A DNA stretch of 56,600 nt, from the NCBI GenBank assembly GCA_013138865.1, contig WTBY01000075.1, positions 1 through 56,600 of the forward strand, read 5' to 3'. Shown piece by piece: positions 7,597 through 27,535 of this stretch. The notes beneath the pieces are model-generated. The model did no database searches. It was not told where the DNA came from and was given only the letters and a program-made list of their open reading frames with translations. This stretch comes from Helicobacteraceae bacterium (GTDB lineage: Bacteria; Campylobacterota; Campylobacteria; Campylobacterales; Sulfurimonadaceae). The first letter of the stretch is position 1. Each line of letters opens with the position of its first letter. The position numbers and the translations under genes are program-made.

Positions 7597-7598
7597 TA

Positions 7599-8618: not shown

Positions 8619-9352
8619 TGCGTTATAAACTAACTATTAGCTACAATGGAGCTCTCTTTTTTGGATCTCAGTCTCAAAAAAATACTTCTCAAACAGTTTT
8701 AGGTAAGTTTGAAGGTGTTCTAAAAAAACTACAAATTAACTCTAAAATAGTAGCCTCAGGAAGAACTGATCGCGGTGTTCACGCAACAGGTCAAGTTATA
8801 CATTTTGATGTACCTGACTTTTGGAACGATAAAAAAAGACTTCACACTATTTTAAACCAGAAACTACCTCCAAGTATAAGAGTAAAAAAAGTAGAGTTAG
8901 TTAATGATGAGTTTCACGCTCGTTATAGTGCTTCAAGAAGAGTCTATCGCTATGTTTTATGTGAAGGTGAAGCTAACCCTTTTGAGTATGACTTTATAAC
9001 TTTTCATAAAAAAATAGATCTAGAACTTTTAGAAAACTCTATAAAACTTTTTGAGGGTAAACACAACTTTGAAATGTTTAAAAAAAGTGGTTCACCCACT
9101 ACTAATTTTGTAAGAACTATATATAAAACTTCTGCCTATAGACATAAAGAAAAAGTAGTTTTACACTTTGAAGCAGATGGATATTTACGATCACAAATAC
9201 GCCTAATGGTAGGTTTTTTACTTCAAATAAACGATAAAATTTTAGATGAGACACAACTTCAAGATCAACTTTCAAATGTTACACAGCACTCAACTTTTAT
9301 AGCCCCTTGTAATGGGCTATACTTAGCAAAAATAAAGTACCCTTTACATTAA
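8618..9352 (+). CDS. truA: tRNA pseudouridine(38-40) synthase
   Basis: TruA isomerises uridines 38-40 in the anticodon stem of many tRNAs. The catalytic signature ASGRTDRGVHATGQV sits near residues 46-60, with the nucleophilic Asp in RTDRG. The C-terminal half carries the RSQIRLMVG motif typical of the family. The length of 244 residues is normal. The start codon is GTG and shares a base with the upstream stop (TAGTG). It closes the long envelope operon; a short AT-rich gap of 46 bases follows. Confidence 0.95.
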   Translation: MRYKLTISYNGALFFGSQSQKNTSQTVLGKFEGVLKKLQINSKIVASGRTDRGVHATGQVIHFDVPDFWNDKKRLHTILNQKLPPSIRVKKVELVNDEFHARYSASRRVYRYVLCEGEANPFEYDFITFHKKIDLELLENSIKLFEGKHNFEMFKKSGSPTTNFVRTIYKTSAYRHKEKVVLHFEADGYLRSQIRLMVGFLLQINDKILDETQLQDQLSNVTQHSTFIAPCNGLYLAKIKYPLH

Positions 9353-9398
9353 TAGTTTTTTATACTACAATCACTCTTTATAAAAATAAAGGCACTTA

Positions 9399-11676: not shown

Positions 11677-13725
11677 ATGACTCAACTACCTAAATTTTTA
11701 AAGTTCATTTTAGCACTTTTTATTTTTGAACTTATTTTGTACTCTCTATGGCGTCTTGCCTTCTACACAGCATTTAAGGATCTTCAAGCTTCTCACACTT
11801 TAAGTGAGGCACTCTACTCTTTTTGGATAGGTTTTAGGTTTGACGCACAATTAATTGCAATTATGAACCTACCTCTTTTACTTTTTGGTGCAGTTAAAAA
11901 AATATCTCTTTTTAGCTCAAAAACTTCAAAATATTTTTGGCTTGGTTATATTGTTTTAACTAACTGGTTAATGAGTTTAGTCTATATTATAAATATTGGC
12001 TACTTTGACTTCTTCAAAAAGATGGTTGACAACTCAATTATACGCTATTTTTATGACATAAGCATGGCTATGCAGATGTTAGTTGAGGGCTACCCTATAA
12101 TTAGTTCAAGTCTAGTTGTTACACTCTACTTAGTAGCTATATTTACACTATTTAACTTTATATATAACAGACTTCACTCTTCTACTGATCATAAGTTATC
12201 AAAAGGGTCTAAAGTAACTATTTATATAATCTTTGTTTTTTTATATATTTTTGCAGGTTATGGCAAGGTTGAACTATATCCATGGAGATGGAGTGAGGCT
12301 TTTTATAGTTCAAATAAGTTTTTAAACTCTGTTGCTTCAAATCCAGCTACATACTTTCTAAACACACTAAAAAATAAAACTATAAAGTTTGATGAGAGTG
12401 CTACTAAAAAATATTACGATAGTGTAGCTCAGTTTTTAAATATTAAAAAGCGTGATCCAAATAGACTCTCTTTAGTTAGAGAAGTTATACCAGATCACTC
12501 TAAAGAGTACACATTTAACAAACCAAATATAGTTTTTATTTTAGGTGAGTCAACGGCTTATGGACGTACTAGTATCTCAAATAATCCACTTAACCCTACT
12601 CCGTTTATCAAAGAGATGAGTGATAAGGGTATTACATATTCTCGTTATTACACTCCTCACTCAGGAACGGCGAGAAGTGTTTGGGCATCTATGACTGGTT
12701 TAGCTGATGTTGAACGAATTAAAACAAGCTCTCGTAACCCAATGGTTGTTAATCAGCACATGATCTTAAACTCATTTGAGAATTATGAAAAATTTTACTT
12801 TATAGGTGGTAGTCTTAGTTGGGGAAATGTTAGGGGTGTAATTTCAAATGTTAATCACTTAAATATTTACGAAGAGCATAACTACCCTAACTCATCAAGA
12901 AATGATGTTTGGGGTATAAGCGATGTTCACTTAGCACATGAAGTAAATGATGTACTAAAAAAACAGACAAAACCATTTTTTGCTTATGTTCAACTCTCAG
13001 GAAACCACTCACCAAATAACATACCAGATGATAACTTTGGTTTTAAAGCCTCTACTAATTTAGATAAAGAACTACTTCAAAAGTATGGTTTTAATGGTAG
13101 TGAAGATGAATTTAATGGGCAAAAGTTTTTAGACTTTAGTGTTGAGCAGTTAATCACACTTGCCAAAAAAGAGCCCTACTTTAAAAATACTATTTTTATT
13201 TTTGTTGGTGATCATGGACTGCCTAATAAATATGATCAACTTCACGAAGCAGAGCAAACTTTTAGAACTAATACACTACACACTCCACTTATTATTTATG
13301 CACCATACTTGATCAAACATAAAAAAGTAGACTATCCTGTAAGCGAAGTTGACATAATGGCTACTATCGGTGGACTAATTGGTAAGCCATATATTAACTC
13401 AACACTAGGTCGTGATCTTTTAGCCAAAGACTTTGATGAGCAACCTCACTACACATATTTTATGACACATGAGGTTAATCCAACTATTAATATAATGAGT
13501 AAAGAGTTTATTTTTAGAGTCAGATCAGATGGAAGTGAACCAAGACTATTTAAGTATCACTATGAAAAAAAAGATCATAACCTAATTAAGAAGTATCCAA
13601 AAATAGCTAAAGAGATGGAGAATATGGCTAGAGGTATTTTTGAGTCAACTAGATATACAAGATTTAACAACTCTAGTGAAGATGTTCAAAGAACTCTATT
13701 ACTTTTAAATAACCTCGACTACTAA
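11677..13725 (+). CDS. LtaS-like sulfatase-fold phosphoglycerol/phosphoethanolamine transferase
   Basis: This 682-residue protein has about five N-terminal transmembrane helices (to about residue 195) and a large periplasmic alkaline-phosphatase-superfamily domain (about 285-620). Metal and nucleophile motifs are visible: VFILGESTAYGR near 288-299, the nucleophile Thr in SGTARSVWASMTG near 330, and FVGDHGLP near 510. Gram-positive relatives polymerise lipoteichoic acid, and Gram-negative ones decorate glucans or lipid A. Here a head-group transfer to an envelope lipid or glycan is the best guess. It starts two bases after a phosphatase gene. Its stop overlaps the stop of the convergent TPR protein by four bases. 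Confidence 0.78.
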   Translation: MTQLPKFLKFILALFIFELILYSLWRLAFYTAFKDLQASHTLSEALYSFWIGFRFDAQLIAIMNLPLLLFGAVKKISLFSSKTSKYFWLGYIVLTNWLMSLVYIINIGYFDFFKKMVDNSIIRYFYDISMAMQMLVEGYPIISSSLVVTLYLVAIFTLFNFIYNRLHSSTDHKLSKGSKVTIYIIFVFLYIFAGYGKVELYPWRWSEAFYSSNKFLNSVASNPATYFLNTLKNKTIKFDESATKKYYDSVAQFLNIKKRDPNRLSLVREVIPDHSKEYTFNKPNIVFILGESTAYGRTSISNNPLNPTPFIKEMSDKGITYSRYYTPHSGTARSVWASMTGLADVERIKTSSRNPMVVNQHMILNSFENYEKFYFIGGSLSWGNVRGVISNVNHLNIYEEHNYPNSSRNDVWGISDVHLAHEVNDVLKKQTKPFFAYVQLSGNHSPNNIPDDNFGFKASTNLDKELLQKYGFNGSEDEFNGQKFLDFSVEQLITLAKKEPYFKNTIFIFVGDHGLPNKYDQLHEAEQTFRTNTLHTPLIIYAPYLIKHKKVDYPVSEVDIMATIGGLIGKPYINSTLGRDLLAKDFDEQPHYTYFMTHEVNPTINIMSKEFIFRVRSDGSEPRLFKYHYEKKDHNLIKKYPKIAKEMENMARGIFESTRYTRFNNSSEDVQRTLLLLNNLDY

Positions 13726-15845
13726 AATCTATAATATAGATATGTTTTAATAACATACTTATCATAATCAAATGGATTTTGATTTGAAACCTGTTTCATA
13801 AACTGCACATTTGTTGTAAAAGTAATGTTTTTATTATATACATAATTACCACCAAATGTATAACGAAGAAGTTTATCATAACGTCTAGTTTGGAAGTTAA
13901 CATCTCGATCGTCATATGTAGAATAAAGTGAATAGAACTCGGCATTTGCACTAAGGTCTTTCATAAACTGGTATGAAGTTGCAAGAACTAAAGAGTAGTA
14001 TTTTTTATCTACATCAGTTCTTACACCTTGTAGTTTCAGCTCTTTACCAAGCATAGCTTTTATATTTAGTGTTGGCTTATCTTTTAGACGAATATTTAGA
14101 CTATTAGTAAACTCAAAAGCATTTGCATTTTTATCTTTATTTGTAGGTGCTATAAATGTTTTATTAGCATACCTAAAGTAAGAGCTATATGTTAAGAACT
14201 TATCAATGGCAGTAGTAAACTTAGGCACTACGGCGGCATTGTTAAGATAACTAACTCCACCATACCAAACATGATCGTAGTAAAATGAGAGCTGGTATTG
14301 CGACTTAGCGTTAAGATAAGATGGTGCCAAAGAGAGTGAAACAAGATCAAGATCTTTCTCTTTATATTCTGGATATTTTTGAGAATACAAAGTCATAGAA
14401 TTATCTAGTCTAAACTCCTCACTATCTTTATACACATGGTTTAAAATAACACCTGCTTCATGTGTCATAGAACCTTTTTTATTTGCTGGATTGATTGGTG
14501 TATTTTGACCTAAAGAAGGTATAAAAATATTGTATTCACCAGGATTTGTACCATTATCTATATTTGAGTCATACGAAATACCATAAAAAGCCATTGCTCC
14601 AAAGAAGTTCTTTCTTGTAGCATTGTCTATTCTTGCAAGTAAATTTTTAACTTTTGATCTAACTTTATCAGGTATTTTTTCTTCTAAAATATTTGTAAAT
14701 ATTTTTCTTGCTGACTTGTAATTTTTAAGTCTAAGCATAGTCTGTGCAATTTCAAGTTTAACTCTTAAGTTATCAGGTTTATCAAAGAGAATGCGATCAT
14801 ATGCTGCAAGTGCATCTTCATACTCTCCTAACTCATAAGCTGAGCGTCCTAAATAGAAATCCACTCTATTCGCATCAACTAAACCTTCATCAAGAGTCTC
14901 AAATTTAGTATAAGCTTCTTTATAACGTTTAGCTTTAAAGAGTTGCTGAGCCTCTTTAAATTTGTCTAAACCAACCTCTGCATAGGTTTTAATAACTTCA
15001 ACTTTTGGCTTCTTTATCACAGGCTTTGGTTTAGCTACAGCGTCAACAAAACGTACATAAACTTTTGGTTTTTGATTTTTTGGTACACGAGGAATATATG
15101 TTGATTTTTTAAGATCAGGACGGCGATCTTTTATAAATGATTCAGGAAAGCTATATTGGATTTTATAGAGTTCATTTTTCACATTTTTAGGTTCAATATT
15201 TACAGCATAAATCATATAAAATTTGTCATACTCTTTCACACATATGTTAACATAGTCAACTAGCTCTAAAGTATCCGCTAAATTTATTTTATCATAAACA
15301 GCCGTTATAAAAATAATTTTTTTTCTGTAGTCAACTTTTGAAGCAGAGAGTGCTTTTTTAAAAGTTAATTTTGGAAGGTTTGTATATTTAATTTTAGGAA
15401 GTTTTATTTTAGTAGGCATCTTTAATATAGGAATTTTTATATCATATTTTTTTATTTCATATTTTTTAGCTCTATATTTTTTTGTTGAATATTTATATAC
15501 TTTTTTTCTAGATATACTCTTTTTAGTTTTTTTAGATTCTACTTTTTTATTTGAATTATTTAAATAATAGTAGTCAAAAGAGACATCTTCAAAATCAAAA
15601 TAAGCACCCTTGAAAATAGTTTTAATATTTGTCAATGCGCCTATGCCATGCTTTTCAGGTATATTAATGACATATATATCAGATATACCATTTCTAGTTG
15701 TTATAGCCAGATCATAATGTTTTAAAGAGCTAATTATTTTTTCTAGTTTATCTTTATTATTTGAAGAAGTTACTTTTATACTTATAGGTTGTGCATTGAG
15801 TGTCATACCAACAGTCGTCAAAAAAACTAACCCGAGTTTATTCAA
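13722..15845 (-). CDS. TPR protein with C-terminal outer-membrane beta-barrel
   Basis: The 707-residue product has a signal peptide (about residues 1-18, ending LNAQ), then a Lys/Tyr-rich low-complexity stretch (about 105-160), then tetratricopeptide repeats (about 290-410). The last 290 residues have alternating hydrophobic strands and end in Tyr-Arg-Phe, as expected for an outer-membrane barrel. TPR followed by a barrel of this size is the layout of the DUF560/Slam family, which moves proteins across the outer membrane. The barrel opens with the YDSNID motif, reminiscent of that family. This is a layout argument, not a database match. It lies next to a FecR-domain protein on the same strand that could be its cargo. 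Confidence 0.62.
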   Translation of the reverse strand: MNKLGLVFLTTVGMTLNAQPISIKVTSSNNKDKLEKIISSLKHYDLAITTRNGISDIYVINIPEKHGIGALTNIKTIFKGAYFDFEDVSFDYYYLNNSNKKVESKKTKKSISRKKVYKYSTKKYRAKKYEIKKYDIKIPILKMPTKIKLPKIKYTNLPKLTFKKALSASKVDYRKKIIFITAVYDKINLADTLELVDYVNICVKEYDKFYMIYAVNIEPKNVKNELYKIQYSFPESFIKDRRPDLKKSTYIPRVPKNQKPKVYVRFVDAVAKPKPVIKKPKVEVIKTYAEVGLDKFKEAQQLFKAKRYKEAYTKFETLDEGLVDANRVDFYLGRSAYELGEYEDALAAYDRILFDKPDNLRVKLEIAQTMLRLKNYKSARKIFTNILEEKIPDKVRSKVKNLLARIDNATRKNFFGAMAFYGISYDSNIDNGTNPGEYNIFIPSLGQNTPINPANKKGSMTHEAGVILNHVYKDSEEFRLDNSMTLYSQKYPEYKEKDLDLVSLSLAPSYLNAKSQYQLSFYYDHVWYGGVSYLNNAAVVPKFTTAIDKFLTYSSYFRYANKTFIAPTNKDKNANAFEFTNSLNIRLKDKPTLNIKAMLGKELKLQGVRTDVDKKYYSLVLATSYQFMKDLSANAEFYSLYSTYDDRDVNFQTRRYDKLLRYTFGGNYVYNKNITFTTNVQFMKQVSNQNPFDYDKYVIKTYLYYRF

Positions 15846-15894
15846 AGCGTACCTATCCTATATAAAATTTTTAATATTAAGCATATTTCATACC

Positions 15895-16725
15895 ATGCCG
15901 ATGTATAAGAATATCAAAATTTACGATAAAATAGTAAAAATTAATTACAAAGATTTAATGATGATGATAATTGGTGCACATGGTACAAAGTCTAAAGATA
16001 GCTCACTCTCAACATTTTTAATTGATAATGAGACTACTATTGATGCAGGAAATTTAATAGATGGGCTTGGTGAAGAGTTTTTAAATGTAAATAGTGTATT
16101 TATAACTCATTCACATTTGGATCACATTGTTGATCTACCTCTAATAATTGATACTATGTATGACAAATTAAAACATTCTATAAATGTTTATGCAACTGCC
16201 CCAATTATTAAAGCTCTTAAAGATCATATGTTTAATAATATTATATGGCCTGATTTCTCAATGATACCTCTTATAGGAACATCTGATAAGGTTATTGTAT
16301 ATCATGAAATTGAGTATGATAAAGAGTATAAAACATTTGAGAGTACTCTAACTCCATTTAAAAATAACCATATGAATGGAAGTTGTGGTTTTATAATAAA
16401 TAATAAAGTAATGCTAACTTCTGATACTTATAAGTGTGATCGCATATGGGAAATATTAAATGAAAATAAAAAGATTGACACATTAATAATAGAGATATCG
16501 TTTAGTTCTGATCTAAATGGCTTAGCTGAAGCTAGTAAGCACTTAACCCCATCTCTTTTGAAAGAAGAGTTAACAAAACTAAAGCGTGATGATGTACATA
16601 TATATATTAATCATATAAAAGAATCATCATATCATAAGATCGTTAAAGAGATAAAAGAGCTTAATCTTAATGTAGAGATTCTAGATAACTTTGTTTGTAT
16701 AGCTAACTCTAAAGCTACTGTTTAG
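15895..16725 (+). CDS. class II 3',5'-cyclic-nucleotide phosphodiesterase
   Basis: This metallo-beta-lactamase-fold enzyme carries the class II cyclic-nucleotide phosphodiesterase signature THSHLDHIVDLPLIID at about residues 80-95 of this version, preceded by IIGAHGTKSKDSS and TTIDAGN as in yeast Pde1. C-terminal metal ligands are likely at MLTSDT and YINHIKES. It should hydrolyse cAMP or cGMP. The open frame extends upstream to 15796, but that part overlaps the divergent TPR gene and reads poorly. I favour ATG 15895 or 15901. No strong ribosome binding site is seen. It lies within a cluster encoding a nucleotide cyclase and three cyclic-nucleotide-binding proteins, so it is probably their off-switch. 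The end overlaps the convergent FecR gene by 11 bases. Confidence 0.83.
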   Translation: MPMYKNIKIYDKIVKINYKDLMMMIIGAHGTKSKDSSLSTFLIDNETTIDAGNLIDGLGEEFLNVNSVFITHSHLDHIVDLPLIIDTMYDKLKHSINVYATAPIIKALKDHMFNNIIWPDFSMIPLIGTSDKVIVYHEIEYDKEYKTFESTLTPFKNNHMNGSCGFIINNKVMLTSDTYKCDRIWEILNENKKIDTLIIEISFSSDLNGLAEASKHLTPSLLKEELTKLKRDDVHIYINHIKESSYHKIVKEIKELNLNVEILDNFVCIANSKATV

Positions 16726-16732
16726 TAGCTTT
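16711..16732. terminator. bidirectional hairpin between convergent genes
   Basis: AAAGCTACT and AGTAGCTTT form a perfect 9-bp stem around a GTTT loop. The stem covers the stop codons of both the phosphodiesterase (+) and the FecR protein (-), and A/T at its base would give short U tracts in either direction. It is a probable shared terminator. Confidence 0.5.
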
Positions 16733-19700
16733 AAATACTCCTTGAGCTGTTTGTCCACCATTTCCTAAGTTAAAGTTACCACCAACACTTTTCACCTCAC
16801 CAGTACCATAATAAGCACCTTGCATGCTACCTGCACCACCACCAAGATCAGCATTAAACCCTGAGTTAGTTACAGTACCACCACCGATTGTTGAACTCCA
16901 GTTTTTAACAGTTTCTGAACCAATTTGTGAATCAAATGCCATATTACCTGTTACTGCGTTAACACCACCACCAAAGTCTATCCCAATGTCTAGTTGATTA
17001 TTACCATTCATTAAAATAGATCCTGTATTAGTACCATCACTTACTGTTCCCATAGTATTCCCACTAAATGAAGCACTTGCTCCACTATCTATTAAATTTT
17101 GAACATGAGAGGTATCAGTTGCTGTTCCACTAACCCAAGTTGATCTATGATCTACTTTGGTTATAGTTCCATCACCATTATCTAAATCAGCAGTCCAGTA
17201 TCCCCAAGAACTTTCATCATCAGCACTTTGGGTTAACTCTCCATTAGCATCCATTTTATCTGGCACAGCTACCATCCATGAAGCTTTATCAACTGCCCCA
17301 TTTCCTTGTATTAACACACCATACTTGTCATCATTTATATAGTAAGAGCTACCATCGTTTACAGTTCCACTTGCAGTATATGCAGTAGCGCCCTTTTTCA
17401 TAACTGTTGTACCACTTATAGTTCCACTTTCTCTATCAATATTTAGAACACCTGTATTAGCTGGTGCTCCGCCACTTTGAAAACCTCTGTTTTGTGTGTA
17501 TGTACCTGTATTTACAACATCTTTTGTACTACCTAAATAAGATGCTTGAATACCTTCAGATGAACTTTTTAGGTCTTGATTAGTTGCTCCGCTATTAGTA
17601 TGTGTTTTAGAGCTACTTGTAGCACCAAAACCCTGCCCATCACTTCCATATAGCGAACCATCAACACTACCTACACTATTTGTAGTAGTATCTTTTGAGT
17701 ACTTAACACCACTTACAGTTCCATCACTTTTAAGTCTCATAGAGTTAAATGTGGCACCTGCTTCATGCACTTTAGTACGATCGTACTGTGTCATACTTTT
17801 TGTTTTAGTATTTAAATGTGTTGTTTTATTAGTAAAATCACTATTGTACGAAGAGTCATTTAAAAATGTTCCACCATCTTTTGTATTTACTAACTCTTTA
17901 AAACCACTATAAACATACTCTTTGTTATCTTCTAGCTTTGTAGTGTCAGTAGCTTTTCCACTATAGTACATATCTTTATAGTTGTGAGTTTCACCATCGA
18001 TAGTCCACTGCTCATCTGTCGTTCCAACCATAAATTCACCAGTATTATCAGCTTGAATTTGATATGTTCCAGTATGCTCTACACCATCAATAGTCCTAGT
18101 AAATGCCATACTTCCAACATTTGAGTTAGTTCCTTTGTAAGTTCCAACTCCTCCACCATCAAAACCTGCATAAGTTAATGATCCACTTTTTGCAACACTT
18201 CCATCTGCTTTCTCCTCAAAAACTTGTGAGTAAATATTTCCATTATCACTTTTCCAAGATACTACAAACCGACCATCATCTAAAACAGTTATTGAGCTTG
18301 TACTGCCAGTAGCAGTTGAACCTGCACTAGCAGCAAACTCTACACCAACTTTGTTTCCATCATTATCATAGATCTGTGCATACACTTTAGCATCTTGTCC
18401 AGAGCTACTCCATGTTGCAATAAATTTATTATCACCATACTTTGTTAATTTAGAGTCTGTTGCATCACCACCAGTATATGTTGAAAGTTTAAACTCCCCT
18501 CCACTTTTGGTTCCATCTGCGTTAAATACTTGTGCATATACACCATCATTAGTTGCTGCATTATCTTGAGATTCAGAAGTCCAACTGATTATGAACTTGC
18601 CATTACCTAAACCTACTACACTTGATCCAGACTGTGTTCCAGTAGTAAAACTATTCGCTTGAACAGCACTTTCTACTACAGTACCATCATTTTTAACAAT
18701 ACTAAAAAAGACCTCTTTTGGATCTTGTGCTCCATGATCCCAAGAAACAACTACGTCACCATTAGCTAAAGATGTAACTGAAGGCTCTTTTGTCCAGTCA
18801 CTTGCTGTGTTACTTAGTGTAACTTCGCCACCTATAACACTTCCATCATTGTTATACATCTGTCCAACTATTTTATCCGTAGTTCCATCATGCCATGTAC
18901 TTCTGTAAACTACCATATATTTACCATCTAAAGCTACTATTTTAGAGTTGTCTTTTTCATTACCAATTGTTGTATTTACTTGAACTTCGGTACCGTTCTT
19001 AGTTCCATCTACATTGAAAAGTTGTGAAAATGTATTTGATGTAGATCCATCGCCAGAGTCCCAACTTACAATAAAGCTACCATCACTTAGAGCTACTGAG
19101 CTTGATTTTGATTGAGAGTTAGAGACAGAAGTATTTACTGCAAACTCACTACCAGCTGCTACACCATCTGAAGTAAATCTTTGTCCATAAACTCCATAAC
19201 CATCGCCATCTTGCGCATCACTGTCCCAAGTAACTAAATAGCCACCATCTGAGAGTGATGTAACAAATGAGTTCTGCTTATTTGTTCCAACGTGTGTCGG
19301 AGCTGTTATACCTGTATTGCTATGTGCATTAAATGCTTGTGTTGTTGAAGTTCCACTCATGGTTAAGTTATCTGGTGTCTTATTCATAGTTACATCACCA
19401 AATGTAGTAAAATTATTTTTATTAGTTGTACCTGCTGAATTAGTTAAAGAGCCTAACTGTTTACCAGTTAGTGTTGCTGTTTTAGAAGCAACTACTGCAG
19501 CAGCTTCTGCTTCTGCAGTAGCTGCTGCATCAGCAACTTCTTGTGCTGCTAACTTATCAGCTGCATCTTGTGCTGCTGTTGCCGCTGCTGCCGCTTCAGC
19601 CTCTTTTTGAGCAGCATCTTTTAAAGTCGCTTCATAAGTTGCTATTTCTAGATCGCTCTCAAGAACATCATTTTTAGAAGATTCAGTTGTTTGGGAGCTT

Positions 19701-20353
19701 GCTTTATCTACTTGTTTATTTGCATCTTTAGATGAACTATCAACTTCTTCAAGTAACTCTTCCTCTTCTAAAGTATCTGAACCACTATCCATAGAAGCGA
19801 TATCTGCTGCTTTAAACTCTACTGGTGCTGAGGGTGGTGCATTTTCAGGTGTTATTGTAATCATTCCAGCTGGTACTATTTGTGTAATGCCGTGTGAACT
19901 TACAGATATTTCACCTTGTGTACAAGCAACTTTAGTCTGGTCACCTATTAAAATAGTTCCCCTAATTCCTATTGTTGCCGTTTTTGTTTTTAACTTAAAT
20001 CTATGAGGAGCAACTTTACCAATAACACCTGTAATAGATTTAAAAGCACCCTTCATAAATTTAAAACTTGTTTTTGATTTTTTTGGTTTTTTGGGATCAT
20101 ACAGATAATCTTCAATTTTAAAGACTGCATTTTTACCTATTGTGATAGTTGTTTTGTCTTTAAAAACTATTTGAGCTCGTGATCGTCCTATTGACTTTAC
20201 TATATCTTTATTCTCTAGCTTAGTTCCCTTAGAAGCAACAATAGTTTTTCCATCTCTAAGTACATTAACTTCACCTTTTACTCCGCGAATTTTACCTATT
20301 GAGGCAAAAAGCATTATATTCATTAAAATTACTGAGATTAAGATTTTCAACAT
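16715..20353 (-). CDS. giant FecR-domain exported protein with propeller-like repeats
   Basis: This 1212-residue exported protein has a signal peptide (about 1-17) and a FecR domain (about 20-165; VKGEVNVLRDGKTI, GTKLENKD, TIGIRGTILI). An acidic linker and an Ala/Glu/Asp-rich stretch follow (about 235-290). About seven repeats of 45-55 residues then share a VVSWDS-x-QDG-x-VYAQVFNxDGxKxGxEF pattern (about 360-715). The final 500 residues are rich in Gly, Ser, Thr and Asn and look like a beta-rich surface domain. FecR domains often sense or anchor at the envelope; here there is no sigma factor nearby. A FecR domain near a CHASE2 cyclase is a combination I recall from other bacteria. Function is unknown, and adhesin or matrix protein is my best guess. 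The ribosome binding site AAGGAG precedes the ATG. Confidence 0.75.
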   Translation of the reverse strand: MLKILISVILMNIMLFASIGKIRGVKGEVNVLRDGKTIVASKGTKLENKDIVKSIGRSRAQIVFKDKTTITIGKNAVFKIEDYLYDPKKPKKSKTSFKFMKGAFKSITGVIGKVAPHRFKLKTKTATIGIRGTILIGDQTKVACTQGEISVSSHGITQIVPAGMITITPENAPPSAPVEFKAADIASMDSGSDTLEEEELLEEVDSSSKDANKQVDKASSQTTESSKNDVLESDLEIATYEATLKDAAQKEAEAAAAATAAQDAADKLAAQEVADAAATAEAEAAAVVASKTATLTGKQLGSLTNSAGTTNKNNFTTFGDVTMNKTPDNLTMSGTSTTQAFNAHSNTGITAPTHVGTNKQNSFVTSLSDGGYLVTWDSDAQDGDGYGVYGQRFTSDGVAAGSEFAVNTSVSNSQSKSSSVALSDGSFIVSWDSGDGSTSNTFSQLFNVDGTKNGTEVQVNTTIGNEKDNSKIVALDGKYMVVYRSTWHDGTTDKIVGQMYNNDGSVIGGEVTLSNTASDWTKEPSVTSLANGDVVVSWDHGAQDPKEVFFSIVKNDGTVVESAVQANSFTTGTQSGSSVVGLGNGKFIISWTSESQDNAATNDGVYAQVFNADGTKSGGEFKLSTYTGGDATDSKLTKYGDNKFIATWSSSGQDAKVYAQIYDNDGNKVGVEFAASAGSTATGSTSSITVLDDGRFVVSWKSDNGNIYSQVFEEKADGSVAKSGSLTYAGFDGGGVGTYKGTNSNVGSMAFTRTIDGVEHTGTYQIQADNTGEFMVGTTDEQWTIDGETHNYKDMYYSGKATDTTKLEDNKEYVYSGFKELVNTKDGGTFLNDSSYNSDFTNKTTHLNTKTKSMTQYDRTKVHEAGATFNSMRLKSDGTVSGVKYSKDTTTNSVGSVDGSLYGSDGQGFGATSSSKTHTNSGATNQDLKSSSEGIQASYLGSTKDVVNTGTYTQNRGFQSGGAPANTGVLNIDRESGTISGTTVMKKGATAYTASGTVNDGSSYYINDDKYGVLIQGNGAVDKASWMVAVPDKMDANGELTQSADDESSWGYWTADLDNGDGTITKVDHRSTWVSGTATDTSHVQNLIDSGASASFSGNTMGTVSDGTNTGSILMNGNNQLDIGIDFGGGVNAVTGNMAFDSQIGSETVKNWSSTIGGGTVTNSGFNADLGGGAGSMQGAYYGTGEVKSVGGNFNLGNGGQTAQGVFKATKQ
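18200..19285 (-). repeat. seven degenerate ~50-residue coding repeats in the FecR protein
   Basis: Within the FecR protein about seven consecutive units repeat a motif of the form GxFVVSWxSxxQD, then VYAQVFNxDGxKxG, then EFxVNT. Units diverge in sequence, so they are visible in protein, not as exact DNA repeats. Seven units of this size would suit a seven-bladed beta-propeller, although a linear beta-array is possible. Confidence 0.6.
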
Positions 20354-20381
20354 GATGGCTCCTTAAATATATTAAAGCTTA

Positions 20382-20387
20382 TTATAC
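20382..20387 (-). promoter_or_regulatory. -10 element ahead of the FecR gene
   Basis: On the minus strand TATAAT lies about 28 bases before the ATG of the FecR gene, in a 113-base gap after the upstream cNMP-binding gene. It implies that the large protein can be transcribed separately from the two receptor genes. No -35 box is evident. Confidence 0.4.
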
Positions 20388-20466
20388 TGAATAATATAAC
20401 AATAGAGCTTAATCATTTCTTACCATAACAATATAAAGGAAATAGGTCACTCTATTAAGATTAGAT

Positions 20467-21174
20467 TTATTTAGTTTTAACTTTGTTTGCTTTTGTAAGT
20501 TTTTTAGACAATATTTTTGAAAAGTTATGATAAACGCGCATATATATATAATCTAAATTATTTTTAATCTCTTCTTTTATTACAAAACTTAAAACAGTTG
20601 CTCCTGCATGGTTAGAGCGTATAGTCGCAGAACGTGGTTCACTATTTACAAAAGCCATCTCACCAAAAACCTCTTTCTGTTTAATTGCGGCTACTCTTAC
20701 ATTATTTACAGAAACAGAAAGTGTTCCTGAAATAACATAATAGATCTCTTTTGTTGTTTGTCCCTCTAAGAATAGTGTCTCATTTGATGCTAGCTTAGTA
20801 ATTTTTACACTATCTACAATACTTACAAGTTCACGATCACTACAATCATCAAAAAATGGTAACTTATTTTTAACTTGAATAAGTGCTTTTTGTGCAATAG
20901 TCAATTTTTGATCACTTATAAGTATGGGCATATACTTAATAATAATATCGTTCATCTCGCGTTGCATCTCTTTTTGTCGCTGAATAGCTATACTTTCTTG
21001 ATTTATTAACTCTTCATAGTACTTTTCTTCGATCATACAAGCCAAAGTATTATCTGGATTTTCATCTGAAACAACAATAACAGTTGCACCATCTTGAACA
21101 ACTCTTAAAGTATCTGGAAGAGTTGCTAGCAGTTTTGATTTATTTAATACTCGTTGTGATTTTTTTCTGGCCAT
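20467..21174 (-). CDS. cyclic-nucleotide-binding protein with Phd-like N-terminus
   Basis: This 235-residue cytoplasmic protein has a cNMP-binding domain at about residues 110-225. Its phosphate-binding cassette reads FGEMAFVNSEPRSAT, with the Glu and Arg that hold the ribose and cyclic phosphate. There is no helix-turn-helix after the domain, so it is not a Crp/Fnr regulator. The first 55 residues (LRVVQDGATVIVVSDE, then a YYEEL helix) resemble the strand-helix layout of Phd/YefM antitoxins, and a charged helix links the two parts. It starts 27 bases after the related gene at 21202-22173. No catalytic output is visible, so it probably works through protein contacts. Confidence 0.78.
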   Translation of the reverse strand: MARKKSQRVLNKSKLLATLPDTLRVVQDGATVIVVSDENPDNTLACMIEEKYYEELINQESIAIQRQKEMQREMNDIIIKYMPILISDQKLTIAQKALIQVKNKLPFFDDCSDRELVSIVDSVKITKLASNETLFLEGQTTKEIYYVISGTLSVSVNNVRVAAIKQKEVFGEMAFVNSEPRSATIRSNHAGATVLSFVIKEEIKNNLDYIYMRVYHNFSKILSKKLTKANKVKTK

Positions 21175-21201
21175 TGTTATGTTCCTTAATTTATTTCTTA
21201 T

Positions 21202-22173
21202 CTATTTTTTTTTATCTGTTTTTTTATTATGTTTATCAACTCTTTGACTTAAAATAATCGCAAAATTTTGGAAAATACGTCTTAAAGTACCTTCATCAGA
21301 TGGATCACACTCATCATCAATACGAAATTTTAGTATGTTCGTATTATTTGAGGCTGACATAGTTCCTGCACTACGTGGCTCTTTTGTAATAAAAGCCATT
21401 TCACCAAATACTGCACCTTTCTCAAGAGTAGCTACTGTTTTTAACTCATCTTGTTGAACATTGGAGATCGTTACATTTACACGCCCACTAATAATAAAAA
21501 ATATCTCTTCACTAGTTTCACCTTGAAGAAATATACGTTCATCTTTTTTTAGTTTCATAATTGTCACATCACCAACAAGACGGATCAAATCATCATTTTC
21601 TATATTGTCAAAAAAACCTAAAATATTTTTAAACTGAATAAGTGTCTCTTGACCAATAGTTAAAGATGGCTTTTGAACTGGAATATTATCTTCTTCTAAT
21701 CCCATATTGTTGCCATAAGTGATGTTTGCTAAGGCTTCGTTAGCACCAGAGCCATTATTTATAACCCTTACACCACCAGCACTCTCTTGTTTAGTAGAGG
21801 CTTCCATAACTCTTACGCCACCACCAGGAAGATCTTTTTTAGTTGATGCTTCAACTATTCTAACTCCTCCAGCTTCACCTTGCTTTGTGCCTGCTTCAAC
21901 TACACGAACAGAGTTGACACTTTTACACTCTTCAACTTCCGCTTTAAAAGCTTCTGCTTGATTTTTACTAGTAATAACTTCAGTTTTAAGATCTTTAATT
22001 TGGTCATTTTTAGAAGCGATTAGTTCACGTAAAGAGTTATAACCATAGAAGTACATAAATGGTTGCTTGTCTTTATATATAATTATTTTACCGTCTTTTA
22101 CGACCTGTGCTACACAAGCATCAAACTTAGTGCTAACAGTTTCGTATGCGACTTTTTTAACTTGTCCTGCCAT
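21202..22173 (-). CDS. cyclic-nucleotide-binding protein with Phd-like N-terminus and tandem-repeat linker
   Basis: The 323-residue protein has a C-terminal cNMP-binding domain (about residues 180-310) with the cassette FGEMAFITKEPRSAG. The N-terminal 55 residues (ETVSTKFDACVAQVVKDGKI, then a YNSLRELI helix) look like a Phd/YefM-type antitoxin fold. A coiled-coil-like helix follows (about 52-85), then a linker of short tandem repeats (89-143). No DNA-binding helix-turn-helix follows the cNMP domain. It is the first gene of a minus-strand unit with the 235-residue paralogue and probably the FecR gene, divergent from the cyclase across a 104-base region. It is presumably a receptor for the cyclase product. 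Confidence 0.78.
   Translation of the reverse strand: MAGQVKKVAYETVSTKFDACVAQVVKDGKIIIYKDKQPFMYFYGYNSLRELIASKNDQIKDLKTEVITSKNQAEAFKAEVEECKSVNSVRVVEAGTKQGEAGGVRIVEASTKKDLPGGGVRVMEASTKQESAGGVRVINNGSGANEALANITYGNNMGLEEDNIPVQKPSLTIGQETLIQFKNILGFFDNIENDDLIRLVGDVTIMKLKKDERIFLQGETSEEIFFIISGRVNVTISNVQQDELKTVATLEKGAVFGEMAFITKEPRSAGTMSASNNTNILKFRIDDECDPSDEGTLRRIFQNFAIILSQRVDKHNKKTDKKK
21745..21909 (-). repeat. 15-16-residue tandem repeats in the receptor linker
   Basis: Residues 89-143 of the 323-residue cNMP-binding protein contain three full and one partial unit: VRVVEAGTKQGEAGG, VRIVEASTKKDLPGGG, VRVMEASTKQESAGG and VRVINNGSG. The underlying DNA is about 45-48 bases per unit with substitutions. Copy number may vary between strains. 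Confidence 0.8.
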
Positions 22174-22241
22174 TTTTTATAAGCACCTAAAATTTAAATT
22201 GTAAAATAATATCATATATTGATTTAATTAATCTTTTAATA

Positions 22242-22247
22242 TATAAT
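22242..22247 (+). promoter_or_regulatory. -10 element of the cyclase operon
   Basis: TATAAT lies 30 bases before the cyclase ATG at 22278, inside the divergent 104-base region shared with the receptor gene that starts at 22173. A ribosome binding site CAAGGA is at 22263-22268. Shared control of cyclase and receptors from this region is plausible. Confidence 0.45.
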
Positions 22248-22277
22248 ATTAAACTTAAAAGTCAAGGAAACAACCTA

Positions 22278-24476
22278 ATGAACAAACACCTTAAAAAATT
22301 TTTAATATATTTCATTATGAGTTTTATACTCTCGATTACGCTTATTGGGGTCTACCTTAAGCTACCAGAAGCACTAAATACTATTAACAACAATATGAGA
22401 GACTTTATGTTTATCACACGTGGCGAGATTCCTCAAAGTGACAAAGTAGTTATTGTTGATTTAGATAACAAATCATTAGAAGAGATTGGTCAATGGCCTT
22501 GGTCACGTAATGTAGTTGCCGAACTTCTTAAAAACTTGACAATTGCAGGAGCAGAAGTAATTGGTTTTGATATTGTTTTTGCCGAGCCCGATCGTAGTTC
22601 TCCACATAAAGTTCTAGGTGACTTAGGTTATGACATAAGTGAAGCAGCAAACTATGATGAGTATTTTGCTTATATTGTTGAGAATACTCCTACCATTTTA
22701 GGGTACCAATTTGAGCTAGAAGAGTCAGACATTTTAAAAACTGATCCTCCTATTAACAAAACACTCTTTATAGACAGACCTGCTGAAGATGAAAATGGAA
22801 ACCCAATTGAAGGTATAAATAGTGAAACAACAAACTTTATAGAAGCATACGGAGTAATTACAAATATACCTATAGTTCAAGATGTTGCAAATTCGAGTGG
22901 TTTTTTTAATAACTCTCCTGATGAAGGCGGTATTGTTAGAAGTGTTCCTCTTATGATCCGTTATGAAGAGGTAGTATATCCATCATTAGTACTTGAAATT
23001 ATCAAACAGGTTAGTGAGGCAAGATTTATATACCTTGACTATGGAATCAAAGGTCTTAAAAGTGTTGATGTTGGTGACTACTCAATTCCTACAGATGTTT
23101 TTGGACGTGCTCTTATTAACTATAGAGGTAAAGAGAAAACATTTAAGTATATACCAGCTGTTGATATTTTACGTGGTGAGTTTAAAGAAGAAGATATTAA
23201 TGGGAAAATTATTCTAATAGGTACATCTGCGGCTGGTCTACTTGATCTTCGTGCTATGCCATTTGAAGCTGTTTATCCTGGAGTTGAAGTCCATGCGAAT
23301 ATGATTGACAACATCTTGGTTGGGGACTTTCTTTCAAAACCTGCTGAAGTTGAACTATTGAATATTATTCATATTATTTTAATTATATTTTTAACTACTT
23401 TTGCCCTAGCTTACCTTCCTATTTTATTAATTCCTTTTGTACTTGCTATGTTTATAGGTGGAGACCTTTATGGGTTGTATTATATGTTATTTACAGAGGG
23501 GTTAGTTTTAAATATTTTAATGCCTCTTATATCATTTGCATCAGCTGCTGTAACATTAATCTTAATTAACTACTTCTTTATCTCGAAAAATGAGAAAAAA
23601 ATTAAAGATAAGTTCTCCGCTAAAGTGTCTAAAGAGGTTATGGAGTCACTACTAGATACTGAGGGTGATGCATTTGCCGCTATGGACAAAGAAATAACAG
23701 TATTTTTTAGTGATGTTCGTGGATTTACAAATATATCTGAAGCGATGCCAAATGCTCACGCATTAATTAAGTTTTTAAATAAATATATGGATCCTATGAC
23801 TGAAATTATAATTGATAAACAAGGTACGATCGATAAATATATCGGTGATGCAATCATGGCATACTGGAATGCTCCTGGTAATGTTGAAGATCACGCTACT
23901 AAAGCACTTGATGCAACGATTGAGCAAATTGATTATCTTGATATTTTGAATGTTGAACTAGCAAAAGAGGGCTTACCTTTTATTGATATTGGTATTGGTC
24001 TTAATACTGGCTCTGCTGTTGTTGGGGAGATGGGAAGTCAGCGAAGAAGTGACTATACTGTAATCGGTGACACCATAAATTTAGGCGCTAGACTTGAAGC
24101 ACTCTGTAAAAGTTACGGTGCAAGAATAATTATATCCTCATATACTAAAGATTTATTAACAAAAGAGTACAATATAAGAAATTTAGATTTGGTACGAGTT
24201 AAAGGTAAACAAGAACCTGTTGAAATATTTGAAGTATATAACCATAATCTGAATAGTGAAGCATTGAGAGATGAACTATTTAACTTTAATATAGCAGTTG
24301 ATCTTTACAGAAAGTCAAATTTTGTTGAGGCACTTGCTATTTTCAAAAAGATGAATGCAGACGAGAATAAACATAATTTAAAAATATATGATACATACAT
24401 TGAAAGATGTGAGGCGTATATAGAACATCCACCAGAAAATTTTGATGGTGTATTTACACATACAACGAAAGGATAA
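22278..24476 (+). CDS. CHASE2-domain class III adenylate/guanylate cyclase
   Basis: This 732-residue membrane receptor has an N-terminal helix (about 8-27), an extracytoplasmic CHASE2 domain (about 35-350; VVIVDLDNKSLEEIGQWPWSR), three closely spaced transmembrane helices (about 355-435) and a cytoplasmic class III cyclase domain (about 470-640). Both metal-binding Asp residues are present (FFSDVRGFTNI and YIGDAIMAYW), as are the YTVIGDTINLGARLE strand and its Asn-Arg pair. The Lys in IDKYIGD favours ATP over GTP as substrate. A tail of about 90 residues follows. It is transcribed with the next cNMP-binding protein and divergently from two more, and a matching phosphodiesterase lies 5.5 kb away. 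The signal sensed by CHASE2 is unknown. Confidence 0.93.
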   Translation: MNKHLKKFLIYFIMSFILSITLIGVYLKLPEALNTINNNMRDFMFITRGEIPQSDKVVIVDLDNKSLEEIGQWPWSRNVVAELLKNLTIAGAEVIGFDIVFAEPDRSSPHKVLGDLGYDISEAANYDEYFAYIVENTPTILGYQFELEESDILKTDPPINKTLFIDRPAEDENGNPIEGINSETTNFIEAYGVITNIPIVQDVANSSGFFNNSPDEGGIVRSVPLMIRYEEVVYPSLVLEIIKQVSEARFIYLDYGIKGLKSVDVGDYSIPTDVFGRALINYRGKEKTFKYIPAVDILRGEFKEEDINGKIILIGTSAAGLLDLRAMPFEAVYPGVEVHANMIDNILVGDFLSKPAEVELLNIIHIILIIFLTTFALAYLPILLIPFVLAMFIGGDLYGLYYMLFTEGLVLNILMPLISFASAAVTLILINYFFISKNEKKIKDKFSAKVSKEVMESLLDTEGDAFAAMDKEITVFFSDVRGFTNISEAMPNAHALIKFLNKYMDPMTEIIIDKQGTIDKYIGDAIMAYWNAPGNVEDHATKALDATIEQIDYLDILNVELAKEGLPFIDIGIGLNTGSAVVGEMGSQRRSDYTVIGDTINLGARLEALCKSYGARIIISSYTKDLLTKEYNIRNLDLVRVKGKQEPVEIFEVYNHNLNSEALRDELFNFNIAVDLYRKSNFVEALAIFKKMNADENKHNLKIYDTYIERCEAYIEHPPENFDGVFTHTTKG

Positions 24477-24478
24477 AA

Positions 24479-25534
24479 ATGTCAGTTAAATTTTTAAATA
24501 AACATTTTTCTAAAACACACTCAGTAATAGAACACCATATAGAGATCTTTGGTATCAAACAAGACCTAAAAGATAGAGAGCTATTCTCATTAAGAGCACA
24601 AATAGGATCTGTTTATAGACTGTTTTCACTTCTTGATAATAAATATGATACAAAATTAAGTCATAATATGTTTAATGATATTATCTCCTTTTTTAATTTC
24701 CATACTAAACTAGAAGCAACAAATGCAAAAATATTGTACAAAGAGTATAGTGAAGAAGCTGAAAAGGCTGACTCTTTTGCTAAGTTTCAAGACTATTATA
24801 ACTCTGAAGTAGAGCTAAATAGTTTTGAGAAACGAATTTTAAGTATATTAAACACTAAACTATACTATTTTGATCTTCTTATTTTTGATCAAGCAAGAAA
24901 ATCAAAGCCCATACAACAATATCTCTTTTCAGTAAATGCTATAGGATCTACTACAACAGTAGACTTTTTAAAAAAATCTGCTAACAGACTAACTACTTTT
25001 GAATTTGAGATAACACCTAGTAAGCTTATGTATAGGTATAAAAGTGATGATATAGCTTATTTAAAAGATCTATACCCTGAAGAGCTAGGTGTGGCTGATA
25101 AGAATCTAATTAAACTACTATCTGTAAAAGATCGAATCAGTTTCTTTGAGAATATGAAAGATAACGATATAAAAGCGATTGTAAAAGATCCATCTTTTCT
25201 AGTATATAAAAAAGGCGATATCATTATTCAAGAGGGTGAAAAAAATGATAGTATTTATTTTATATTCTCTGGTAAATGTCAAGTAATTATAGGAGAACAT
25301 AACATAGCTGAGCTGCAAAAATCTCAGGTATTTGGTGAGTTTGCATTCTTACTAGATACTGCGCGTTCTGCTAGTGTAGTAGCATCGTCACCCACAAGTG
25401 TACTTAGGTTTCGTCTGGACTGTGCTAAGTATGAGTCACAACTTAATGGAATTACTCTGCTTTACAAAAATTTCACAGATGAGTTAGTTAAAAAAATACT
25501 TCACATAAATATGAGCATGGCAAATATTATTTAA
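24479..25534 (+). CDS. cyclic-nucleotide-binding protein with novel helical N-terminus
   Basis: The 351-residue product begins two bases after the cyclase stop codon. Residues about 225-345 form a cNMP-binding domain with the cassette FGEFAFLLDTARSASV. The first 210 residues are mostly helical and charged, contain no motif I recognise, and are unrelated to the Phd-like start of the other two receptors. There is no helix-turn-helix and no transmembrane segment. Its tight coupling to the cyclase suggests it either reads out or feeds back on cyclase activity. I cannot name a function. Confidence 0.75.
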   Translation: MSVKFLNKHFSKTHSVIEHHIEIFGIKQDLKDRELFSLRAQIGSVYRLFSLLDNKYDTKLSHNMFNDIISFFNFHTKLEATNAKILYKEYSEEAEKADSFAKFQDYYNSEVELNSFEKRILSILNTKLYYFDLLIFDQARKSKPIQQYLFSVNAIGSTTTVDFLKKSANRLTTFEFEITPSKLMYRYKSDDIAYLKDLYPEELGVADKNLIKLLSVKDRISFFENMKDNDIKAIVKDPSFLVYKKGDIIIQEGEKNDSIYFIFSGKCQVIIGEHNIAELQKSQVFGEFAFLLDTARSASVVASSPTSVLRFRLDCAKYESQLNGITLLYKNFTDELVKKILHINMSMANII

Positions 25535-25556
25535 GGGTAACCCAAATAACCCTTAA
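25531..25556. terminator. hairpin between convergent genes
   Basis: TTAAGGGT pairs with ACCCTTAA (8 bp) around a 10-base loop. The structure spans the stops of the cNMP-binding gene (+) and the GGDEF-EAL gene (-). No long U tract follows on either strand, so termination is only tentative. Confidence 0.4.
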
Positions 25557-27535
25557 GTTAAATGTTTCTCTATTGGTTCTGGTTTGCCAGTATAGTAGCC
25601 TTGTGAGTAATCAACACCTATCTCTTTAACAACATCTAAAATCTCTTTAGATGAGACAAATTCTGCAATTGTTTGAACTTTCAGTTTTTTTGCTAGTCCA
25701 ACAATAGTTTCAACCATAATTTTTGAGTTATGATCTCTGTCAATATTTGAGATTAAAGATGAGTCTATTTTAATATAATCTATTGGCAAGTTTAATATAT
25801 GCGTAAAATTTGCATAACCAGAACCGAAATCATCAAGTGCTATTTTAATACCATAAGTACGTATTTTAGTACAAAAGTCAAAAACCAATTTATAGTCTTT
25901 AAACTCTTCTGTCTCTAAAAGCTCAACAGTTAAAAGATTATTATAATCAAAATTATCTAGCTTAATATATAGCCATTTTAGTGTTTTTTCATTCTCTATA
26001 TCTTTCATAGATATATTTAAAGAACATGGTATCTTGTACTCTTTTATAGTACTTAATGTATTTATAACTACTCTTTTTGTAATTTTATAATAGACTCTAT
26101 TCTGTTTTGCAACTTCTAAAAATCTAAATGGTGGTATTATTTTCCCATTTTCTTCAACTATTCTAACTAATGACTCATACTTAGTTGGTAGAGAAGTATC
26201 TTGAATAGGAACAATAGGCTGAAAGTAAGATATTACACCATCCGTTTCAAAAGCACGAATAAGCTTATTCTTACACTTTAAGTCATCTTGATGAGTCTCT
26301 TCTAATTTTTTGTCTTCGCTAAATATAGAGATAGGTAGATTATTTTTTTTAGCATTTTTAAGTGCCATATCTGCATATGCAAGCATCTTCTCTTTAGCAC
26401 TAAAGTCTATTCCTGAACTCATAATAAGACTAAAAGAGCTCTCTTTATGAGAGAAAACTTTTTTTGAATACTTACTTAATAGTAACTCAATTTGCTTTAA
26501 AAAGTTAGTACTATCTTCATCTTTAGAGTTTTTAAGTGCGTATACAAATTCATCACCACCAACATGGTAAACATTCATATTTAAGTTTTCTACATTATCT
26601 TTTAGAAAATTTCCAGTTAAAAGTATTGCCTTATTTCCAAACTCTTCTCCATAAACATCATTAAATTTTTGAAAATTATCTATATTAAGAAGGGCAAATT
26701 GTTTAAACTTGTATACTCGTATATCTTCTAAAAGTTTATTTCTATTTGCTAAGCCAGTAATTGAGTTTGTATATACCTCTGTATATAGTTCATTAGTTTT
26801 CTTAGCTATCTCTTCTTCAAGGTTATTGTTATACTCTACTAATTGTTCTTGCAAGAGCTTCTGTTCTGCTTCTGCTTTTTCAGCACGATACAACTCTTGT
26901 TTAATTTTATTTTGTAAAATAGCAAGTTTGTAGACAGAAAAAATAATTAATAGTGCCGCTAAAACAAATGAGTACAAAATATCTGACTCACTTTTAGAAT
27001 TTACAACTTTAAGTGCGCCAATATATTCAGCTAGAATAGTATCAGATAGTGTGAGAAGTTTATTAATATTTTCAGAAAACTTCACTACTACACTATTAAA
27101 TCCAACAAGAGCATCTTCTATATCTTCTGAATCATTACTCTCGATAGCCTCAATAAGTGAAAGTTCCACTGCACTATAACCGACAAGGCGTTTTTTTAGA
27201 ACGTCTATACGCTTATTAATTTCACTAATTTGAATTTCATTATCTAAAATAAACTTATCTAAATCATTAATATTTTTTTTCAGCTTTTCAAAAGATTTAA
27301 TAATATTAACTTTTTCACTACTTTTATTAACAATAGCCTCAAGTATATTTGCACGATTATTTTGAACATTATAATTTAACTCTTTTGCTAATGAATAGAG
27401 TTTTATTTGCTTTGTCTCTATATAGTTAATCATTTTACTAGTTTGCGCAATATTTTTAGAACTTACATATAAAGAGAAAATAAGTAGTCCAAAACCTATA
27501 AGTAGTGTTATATAGAGTCTAATTTGATAGTTCAT
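25553..27535 (-). CDS. membrane GGDEF-EAL c-di-GMP enzyme
   Basis: This 660-residue protein has two transmembrane helices (about 7-25 and 183-203) around a helical periplasmic sensor region, a coiled linker (about 210-245), a GGDEF domain (about 250-400) and an EAL domain (about 415-655). The active-site loop VGGDEFVYAL is intact, so cyclase activity is possible. EAL residues also look intact: YESLVR, LNISM, LLETEEF, LDDFGSGY, IKIDSSL and QGYYTGKP, which suggests a working phosphodiesterase. The net direction cannot be inferred. It is last in a minus-strand unit behind a DUF3373 protein, nine bases away. It lies next to, but points towards, the cyclic-nucleotide cluster. Confidence 0.9.
   Translation of the reverse strand: MNYQIRLYITLLIGFGLLIFSLYVSSKNIAQTSKMINYIETKQIKLYSLAKELNYNVQNNRANILEAIVNKSSEKVNIIKSFEKLKKNINDLDKFILDNEIQISEINKRIDVLKKRLVGYSAVELSLIEAIESNDSEDIEDALVGFNSVVVKFSENINKLLTLSDTILAEYIGALKVVNSKSESDILYSFVLAALLIIFSVYKLAILQNKIKQELYRAEKAEAEQKLLQEQLVEYNNNLEEEIAKKTNELYTEVYTNSITGLANRNKLLEDIRVYKFKQFALLNIDNFQKFNDVYGEEFGNKAILLTGNFLKDNVENLNMNVYHVGGDEFVYALKNSKDEDSTNFLKQIELLLSKYSKKVFSHKESSFSLIMSSGIDFSAKEKMLAYADMALKNAKKNNLPISIFSEDKKLEETHQDDLKCKNKLIRAFETDGVISYFQPIVPIQDTSLPTKYESLVRIVEENGKIIPPFRFLEVAKQNRVYYKITKRVVINTLSTIKEYKIPCSLNISMKDIENEKTLKWLYIKLDNFDYNNLLTVELLETEEFKDYKLVFDFCTKIRTYGIKIALDDFGSGYANFTHILNLPIDYIKIDSSLISNIDRDHNSKIMVETIVGLAKKLKVQTIAEFVSSKEILDVVKEIGVDYSQGYYTGKPEPIEKHLT

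What the first reader, a model, noticed from the sequence alone, without database searches (positions are those of the whole stretch)
13722..25534. Self-contained cyclic-nucleotide circuit wired to a giant envelope protein
Seen: a CHASE2 class III cyclase with intact metal-binding Asp residues, a class II phosphodiesterase (HSHLDH signature) and three proteins with cNMP-binding cassettes, all within 12 kb. They are interleaved with a 1212-residue FecR-domain exported protein and a TPR/beta-barrel protein. None of the three receptors has the helix-turn-helix of Crp/Fnr. Known: cyclases, such phosphodiesterases and cNMP domains handle cAMP or cGMP. Inference: synthesis, removal and read-out of one messenger are encoded together, and the output is protein-level control of a surface structure, not direct transcription control. 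I know of no described system with this exact composition.
Basis: partly seen in the sequence, partly recalled or inferred. Interest (0 to 1): 0.85.

Follow-up and report, generated by a model that had tools for sequence, protein, structure and literature searches.

The report
Envelope-coupled cAMP signalling cluster variant
This stretch encodes a bacterial signalling unit in which a probable surface-displayed protein and its outer-membrane carrier sit beside the enzymes that make and destroy cAMP; the four-gene core has been described before, but this genome adds three unusual cAMP receptors and the surface part most likely feeds signals in rather than being the output.

Summary
In detail: a CHASE2 class III cyclase, a class II phosphodiesterase, three HTH-less cNMP-binding proteins, a 1212-aa FecR protein and a TPR/beta-barrel protein lie in 12 kb. 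The core is not new. Mo et al. 2022 (PMC9239204) described the clustering of CHASE2 adenylate cyclase, phosphodiesterase, FecR protein and TPR protein in Campylobacterota; I find it in most cyclase loci there and in some Gammaproteobacteria. Three things are added here. (1) The FecR protein ends in a TbpB-like barrel, and its neighbour models as TPR plus a 14-stranded barrel of the Slam type: a probable type 11 secretion cargo/carrier pair. (2) FecR genes sit beside CHASE2 genes even where the cytoplasmic output is an HD-GYP or histidine kinase (17 of 17 loci), so FecR belongs to the CHASE2 sensory side. (3) This genome has one class III cyclase and no detectable Crp-type HTH; its cNMP receptors replace Crp. 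Some carry a weak Phd/YefM-like N-terminus, so "no transcription control" is not secure. Verdict: a new variant of a known cluster; direction of signalling inferred, not shown.

The parts
13725..14609 (-). 14-stranded outer-membrane beta-barrel of the TPR/barrel protein (gene 13722-15845), ends in ...YYRF
   Evidence: AlphaFold model pLDDT 95.5; CymA/OmpG best structural matches Z 21-23; 8/36 orthologs match SlipAM PF04575
14616..14990 (-). TPR helices of the same protein (Slam-like)
   Evidence: TPR_19 1e-8, TPR_Slam 4e-5 for the window; TPR_Slam in 21/36 orthologs
15964..16725 (+). free-standing class II cyclic-nucleotide phosphodiesterase (ORF listed from TTG 15796)
   Evidence: PDEase_II 6e-10; yeast PDE1 8.5e-7
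16715..20353 (-). 1212-aa exported FecR-domain protein, whole gene
19907..20185 (-). FecR domain, aa 57-149
   Evidence: PF04773 2.2e-8
18134..19276 (-). seven repeats of about 50-59 aa, beta-propeller-like, aa about 360-740
   Evidence: motif positions 367, 422, 474, 529, 582, 641, 690; propeller fold inferred, not modelled
16718..17140 (-). C-terminal TbpB-like barrel (TbpBBD), aa 1072-1212
   Evidence: 93.8 bits, E 5e-28, against a profile of 31 orthologs without the window; 28/32 members match PF01298; TbpB, LbpB, NHBA, hemophilin in PDB
20467..21174 (-). cNMP receptor cN1 (235 aa), short N-terminal domain plus coil plus cNMP domain
   Evidence: cNMP_binding 1.9e-11
21202..22173 (-). cNMP receptor cN2 (323 aa), N-terminal 60 aa weakly Phd/YefM-like, disordered linker, cNMP domain
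   Evidence: cNMP_binding 9e-15; hhalign of the N-terminal family with Phd
22174..22277 (.). 104-bp divergent intergenic region between cN2-cN1-FecR (-) and cyclase-cN3 (+)
22278..24476 (+). CHASE2 membrane class III adenylyl cyclase, the only class III cyclase found in the genome
24479..25534 (+). cNMP receptor cN3 (351 aa), unknown helical N-terminus plus cNMP domain; 2 bp after the cyclase
   Evidence: cNMP_binding 5.3e-15

Best explanation
An envelope-to-cytoplasm cAMP signalling unit. The TPR/14-stranded barrel is a Slam-like (type 11 secretion) outer-membrane carrier and the FecR protein, with its C-terminal TbpB-like barrel, is its probable cargo, with large repeats exposed at the surface. 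The FecR domain lies on the periplasmic side and acts with the CHASE2 domain of the inner-membrane cyclase, so that a change at the surface or outer membrane sets cyclase activity. cAMP is read by the three HTH-less cNMP proteins (with two relatives elsewhere in the genome) and cleared by the class II phosphodiesterase. Shown: genes, domains, catalytic residues, neighbourhood conservation, FecR-CHASE2 pairing across different outputs. Inferred: cargo/carrier pairing, signal direction, cAMP as ligand, receptor function.
For: Core conserved: 37/51 loci with FecR+TPR/barrel, 29/51 with the PDE as well; also in Hydrogenovibrio, Thiomicrorhabdus and Thiomicrospira. FecR domain in 20/20 cyclase-bearing and 4/20 cyclase-free genomes. 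CHASE2 proteins with HD-GYP or HK output also have an adjacent FecR gene, 17/17, and second-type cyclases 3/3: the sensor pair is constant, the output varies. TbpB-like barrel and Slam-like carrier. One FecR fused to an OmpA-like barrel (L068). Adenylyl-cyclase residues invariant. cNMP-only proteins adjacent to cyclase or PDE also in L079/L169, L160, L080, L082. Literature: NsrA upstream of CHASE2 cyclases (PMC13001267; PMC7529298); FecR + CHASE2 histidine kinase operon (PMC5192318).
Against: Some orthologous loci have short FecR proteins (about 230 aa) without the TbpB-like barrel beside the same kind of TPR/barrel protein, so cargo status is not general. The window's own TPR/barrel protein does not itself match SlipAM. 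7 of 51 (and 13 of 40) cyclase loci have no FecR gene detected within 5 kb (in one, L109, FecR is hidden in the cyclase frame by an assembly gap). The receptors are rare at other loci. Gene pairing shows partnership, not direction.
Confidence: 0.6

Rival explanations
1. One reading: cAMP made here acts through the three receptors to control, at the protein level, display or assembly of the giant FecR surface protein.
For: cN2 and cN1 lie in the same divergent unit as FecR, 27 and 113 bp apart; no Crp HTH over the cut-off in the genome.
Against: Receptors are absent from most loci that keep FecR and the barrel (1 of 51), and FecR pairs with CHASE2 even without a cyclase; receptors are cytosolic by sequence while FecR is exported.
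Confidence: 0.17
2. cN1/cN2-type receptors are cAMP-responsive DNA-binding proteins with a Phd/YefM-like N-terminus: output is transcription after all, through a non-Crp fold. (Compatible with the best explanation; it concerns the read-out step.)
For: Two paralogs match PhdYeFM_antitox at 0.003 and 0.011 over the whole N-terminus; hhalign of nine members with local Phd proteins scores 24.0 against at most 16.7 in 60 shuffled controls; no HTH_Crp_2 over the cut-off in the genome.
Against: Below Pfam's cut-off; cN1, cN2 and four further homologs do not match alone; AlphaFold of the N-terminus is low confidence; cN3 has a different N-terminus.
Confidence: 0.3
3. An anti-phage Pycsar-type system: a class III-like cyclase with cNMP-domain effectors.
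For: PADLOC PycC and PycTIR models match.
Against: Matches cover only the shared cyclase and cNMP domains; no TIR or membrane effector; adenine-selecting Lys/Asp conserved; PDE, FecR and barrel conserved with it.
Confidence: 0.03

Closest known systems
Campylobacterota cAMP cluster of Mo et al. 2022 (PMC9239204)
   Same: CHASE2 adenylate cyclase, phosphodiesterase, FecR protein and TPR protein clustered
   Different: here the PDE is free-standing instead of an MBL-GAF-HD-GYP fusion, and three cNMP receptors are added; carrier/cargo nature not stated there
NsrA - CyaD1/D2/CyaK - Clr of Sinorhizobium meliloti (PMC13001267, PMC7529298, PMC5498481)
   Same: outer-membrane beta-barrel protein and CHASE2 cyclases in one cAMP pathway; FecR and TPR proteins among Clr targets
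   Different: read-out by a Crp-family regulator; NsrA homology to this barrel not tested
BiofilmReg operon of Burkholderia (PMC5192318)
   Same: FecR protein beside a CHASE2 sensor protein
   Different: histidine kinase and response regulator, LysM on the FecR protein, no cyclase
Type 11 secretion system, Slam/DUF560 with TbpBBD cargo (PMC8406197, PMC12282271)
   Same: TPR plus 14-stranded barrel next to an exported protein with a C-terminal TbpB-like barrel
   Different: cargo has FecR and repeats and sits beside a cyclase; no FecR or cyclase is mentioned in those papers

Membership tests
Campylobacterota cAMP cluster (PMC9239204) | CHASE2-domain class III adenylyl cyclase | tested here: met
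Campylobacterota cAMP cluster (PMC9239204) | cAMP phosphodiesterase in the cluster | tested here: met
   class II PDE; free-standing, without GAF-HD-GYP
Campylobacterota cAMP cluster (PMC9239204) | FecR-domain protein and TPR protein in the cluster | tested here: met
Type 11 secretion OMP (Slam/DUF560) | N-terminal TPR and 14-stranded barrel | tested here: met
   model pLDDT 95.5; CymA/OmpG
Type 11 secretion OMP (Slam/DUF560) | SlipAM/DUF560 sequence family | tested here: inconclusive
   8/36 orthologs match PF04575, window does not; TPR_Slam 21/36
Type 11 secretion OMP (Slam/DUF560) | cargo with TbpB-like barrel encoded nearby | tested here: met
Type 11 secretion OMP (Slam/DUF560) | moves cargo across the outer membrane | not testable with these tools
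   needs surface-display or secretion assay
Crp/Fnr regulators (for cN1-cN3) | C-terminal Crp-type HTH | tested here: not met
   only cNMP_binding found; no HTH_Crp_2 over the cut-off in the genome
Phd/YefM-like regulators (for cN1/cN2 N-terminus) | Phd/YefM domain | tested here: inconclusive
Pycsar defence | cNMP effector with TIR or membrane domain | tested here: not met
   receptors match only over the cNMP part
NsrA-CHASE2 pathway | outer-membrane barrel homologous to NsrA acting upstream of the cyclase | not tested
   NsrA sequence not at hand; function known from the papers only

The most novel reading that the evidence does not exclude
A surface sensor built from a type 11 secretion carrier and a FecR/TbpB-barrel cargo drives a CHASE2 adenylyl cyclase, and the cAMP is read by a family of Phd/YefM-cNMP proteins that replace Crp in a genome without a detectable Crp HTH: a new class of cAMP-responsive regulator and a first signalling role for type 11 secretion.
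Probability: 0.2. Interest if true: 0.8.

Novelty: new variant of a known kind. Interest (0 to 1): 0.5.

Why it matters
The ligands of CHASE2 domains are largely unknown. A fixed FecR-CHASE2 pairing over cyclase, HD-GYP and histidine-kinase outputs says where to look for the input, and the TbpB-barrel/Slam-like pair suggests a surface-exposed sensor. It also offers a genome in which cAMP read-out must work without Crp.

Tried and rejected
FecR-cyclase fusion in L109 (G361): the 1088-aa frame runs through an assembly gap (X residues), so rejected. Single-sequence scan of genome contigs found nothing; an alignment query was needed. AlphaFold of cN2 gave low confidence at the N-terminus. Foldseek/VIA of the TPR/barrel listed CymA, OmpG and FadL and no Slam; a missing match is not evidence against. 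Profile search of the receptor N-terminus against PDB gave only chance-level matches. Pycsar considered and rejected. First ORF filter hid FecR genes behind antisense frames in two loci; a six-frame search found them.

Full report
The observation. The cyclase keeps both metal aspartates (D479, D524), the adenine-selecting pair K520/D598 and N601/R605, all invariant in 15 orthologs (the roles of these positions are from general knowledge of class III cyclases), so cAMP is the predicted product. The phosphodiesterase is a class II enzyme (yeast PDE1 is its best solved relative); its start is probably near 15964. The three cNMP domains keep the Gly-Glu and Arg-Ser-Ala of the phosphate-binding cassette, and their profile finds PKG, PKA and HCN domains. 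cN1 and cN2 are 40% identical over the cNMP part, cN3 28-33%. Gene order gives two divergent units from a 104-bp gap: cN2-cN1-FecR (-) and cyclase-cN3 (+).

Neighbourhood. A search of 397 Campylobacterota genomes with the cyclase gave matches in 93, some of them only over the CHASE2 or the catalytic part. In loci with at least 5 kb on both sides, FecR was present in 44 of 51, the TPR/barrel in 38, the class II PDE domain in 36, all three in 29; in an overlapping set of 40 named loci the numbers were 27, 26, 25 and 18. The PDE elsewhere is usually a 780-aa MBL-GAF-HD-GYP fusion. Gammaproteobacteria (Hydrogenovibrio, Thiomicrorhabdus, Thiomicrospira) have the cluster too. FecR domains occur in 20 of 20 sampled cyclase-bearing and 4 of 20 cyclase-free genomes. 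This cluster is already in print: Mo et al. 2022 (PMC9239204) report CHASE2 adenylate cyclases clustered with a phosphodiesterase, a FecR-domain protein and a TPR protein and propose one pathway.

What the envelope proteins are. The C-terminus of the FecR protein is a TbpB-like barrel: 28 of 32 family members match TbpB_B_D, the profile finds TbpB, LbpB, NHBA and hemophilin, and the window sequence scores 93.8 bits against a profile made without it, with none of 200 shuffles reported. The window protein alone does not match the Pfam model, so its assignment rests on its orthologs. The neighbouring protein models with pLDDT 95.5 as TPR helices and a 14-stranded barrel; orthologs match TPR_Slam (21/36) and SlipAM (8/36). 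TbpBBD cargo beside a TPR/14-stranded DUF560 protein is the known pattern of type 11 secretion (PMC8406197). The middle of the FecR protein has seven repeats of about 50-59 residues, propeller-like by sequence. Secretion itself is not shown.

Direction. From the same search I took 17 CHASE2 proteins whose match lacked the cyclase domain. The six checked end in HD-GYP or histidine kinase domains, and all 17 have a FecR gene close by, as do three second-type cyclases. A FecR-CHASE2 histidine kinase operon is known in Burkholderia (PMC5192318). The sensory pair stays while the output changes, which places FecR on the input side. In S. meliloti the outer-membrane barrel NsrA is needed for activation of CHASE2 cyclases (PMC13001267, PMC7529298). 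I therefore read the envelope proteins as input. This remains inference: gene pairing does not prove direction.

Read-out. The genome has one class III cyclase, seven cNMP domains and no HTH_Crp_2 over the cut-off. cN1 and cN2 belong to a small family with members on contigs C45 and C24, the former beside a second class II PDE, and with relatives in a few genomes of the same family. cNMP-only proteins lie beside the cyclase or PDE in a few other loci (L079/L169, L160, L080, L082). The first 60 residues of this family weakly resemble Phd/YefM; four further homologs did not match Pfam and the model is inconclusive. DNA binding is thus possible, not shown.

Judgement. The core is a known cluster; this locus is a variant with a free-standing PDE and three receptors. 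New here, as far as the searched library goes, are the type 11 secretion reading of the FecR/barrel pair, the FecR-CHASE2 pairing across outputs within Campylobacterota, and the Crp-less read-out.

Noticed in passing
25553-27535 (-): GGDEF-EAL protein with an intact GGDEF motif, 18 bp from the end of cN3 and convergent with it; possible link to c-di-GMP.
   Followed up: no
L087 (G000:C24) 651-2902: A cN2-like cNMP receptor lies convergent with and overlapping the end of a flagellin gene.
   Followed up: no
L086 (G000:C45) 7478-9593: A second class II PDE and a cN2-like receptor flank a glucosaminidase-like gene: a second read-out/removal locus without cyclase.
   Followed up: partly
L241-L257: CHASE2-HD-GYP and CHASE2-histidine kinase proteins in Campylobacterota with adjacent FecR and OmpA-domain genes.
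   Followed up: yes
L068 7819-8892 (+): FecR domain fused to an OmpA-like barrel next to a CHASE2 cyclase, in a locus without the TPR/barrel protein.
   Followed up: partly
L136 7687-12130: Campylobacter gastrosuis carries the CHASE2 cyclase and MBL-GAF-HD-GYP pair, unusual for host-associated Campylobacter, and without FecR nearby.
   Followed up: no
L044 2459-9451 (+): A 2330-aa exported protein with LamG-like repeats (by eye) directly precedes a CHASE2 cyclase that lacks FecR neighbours.
   Followed up: no
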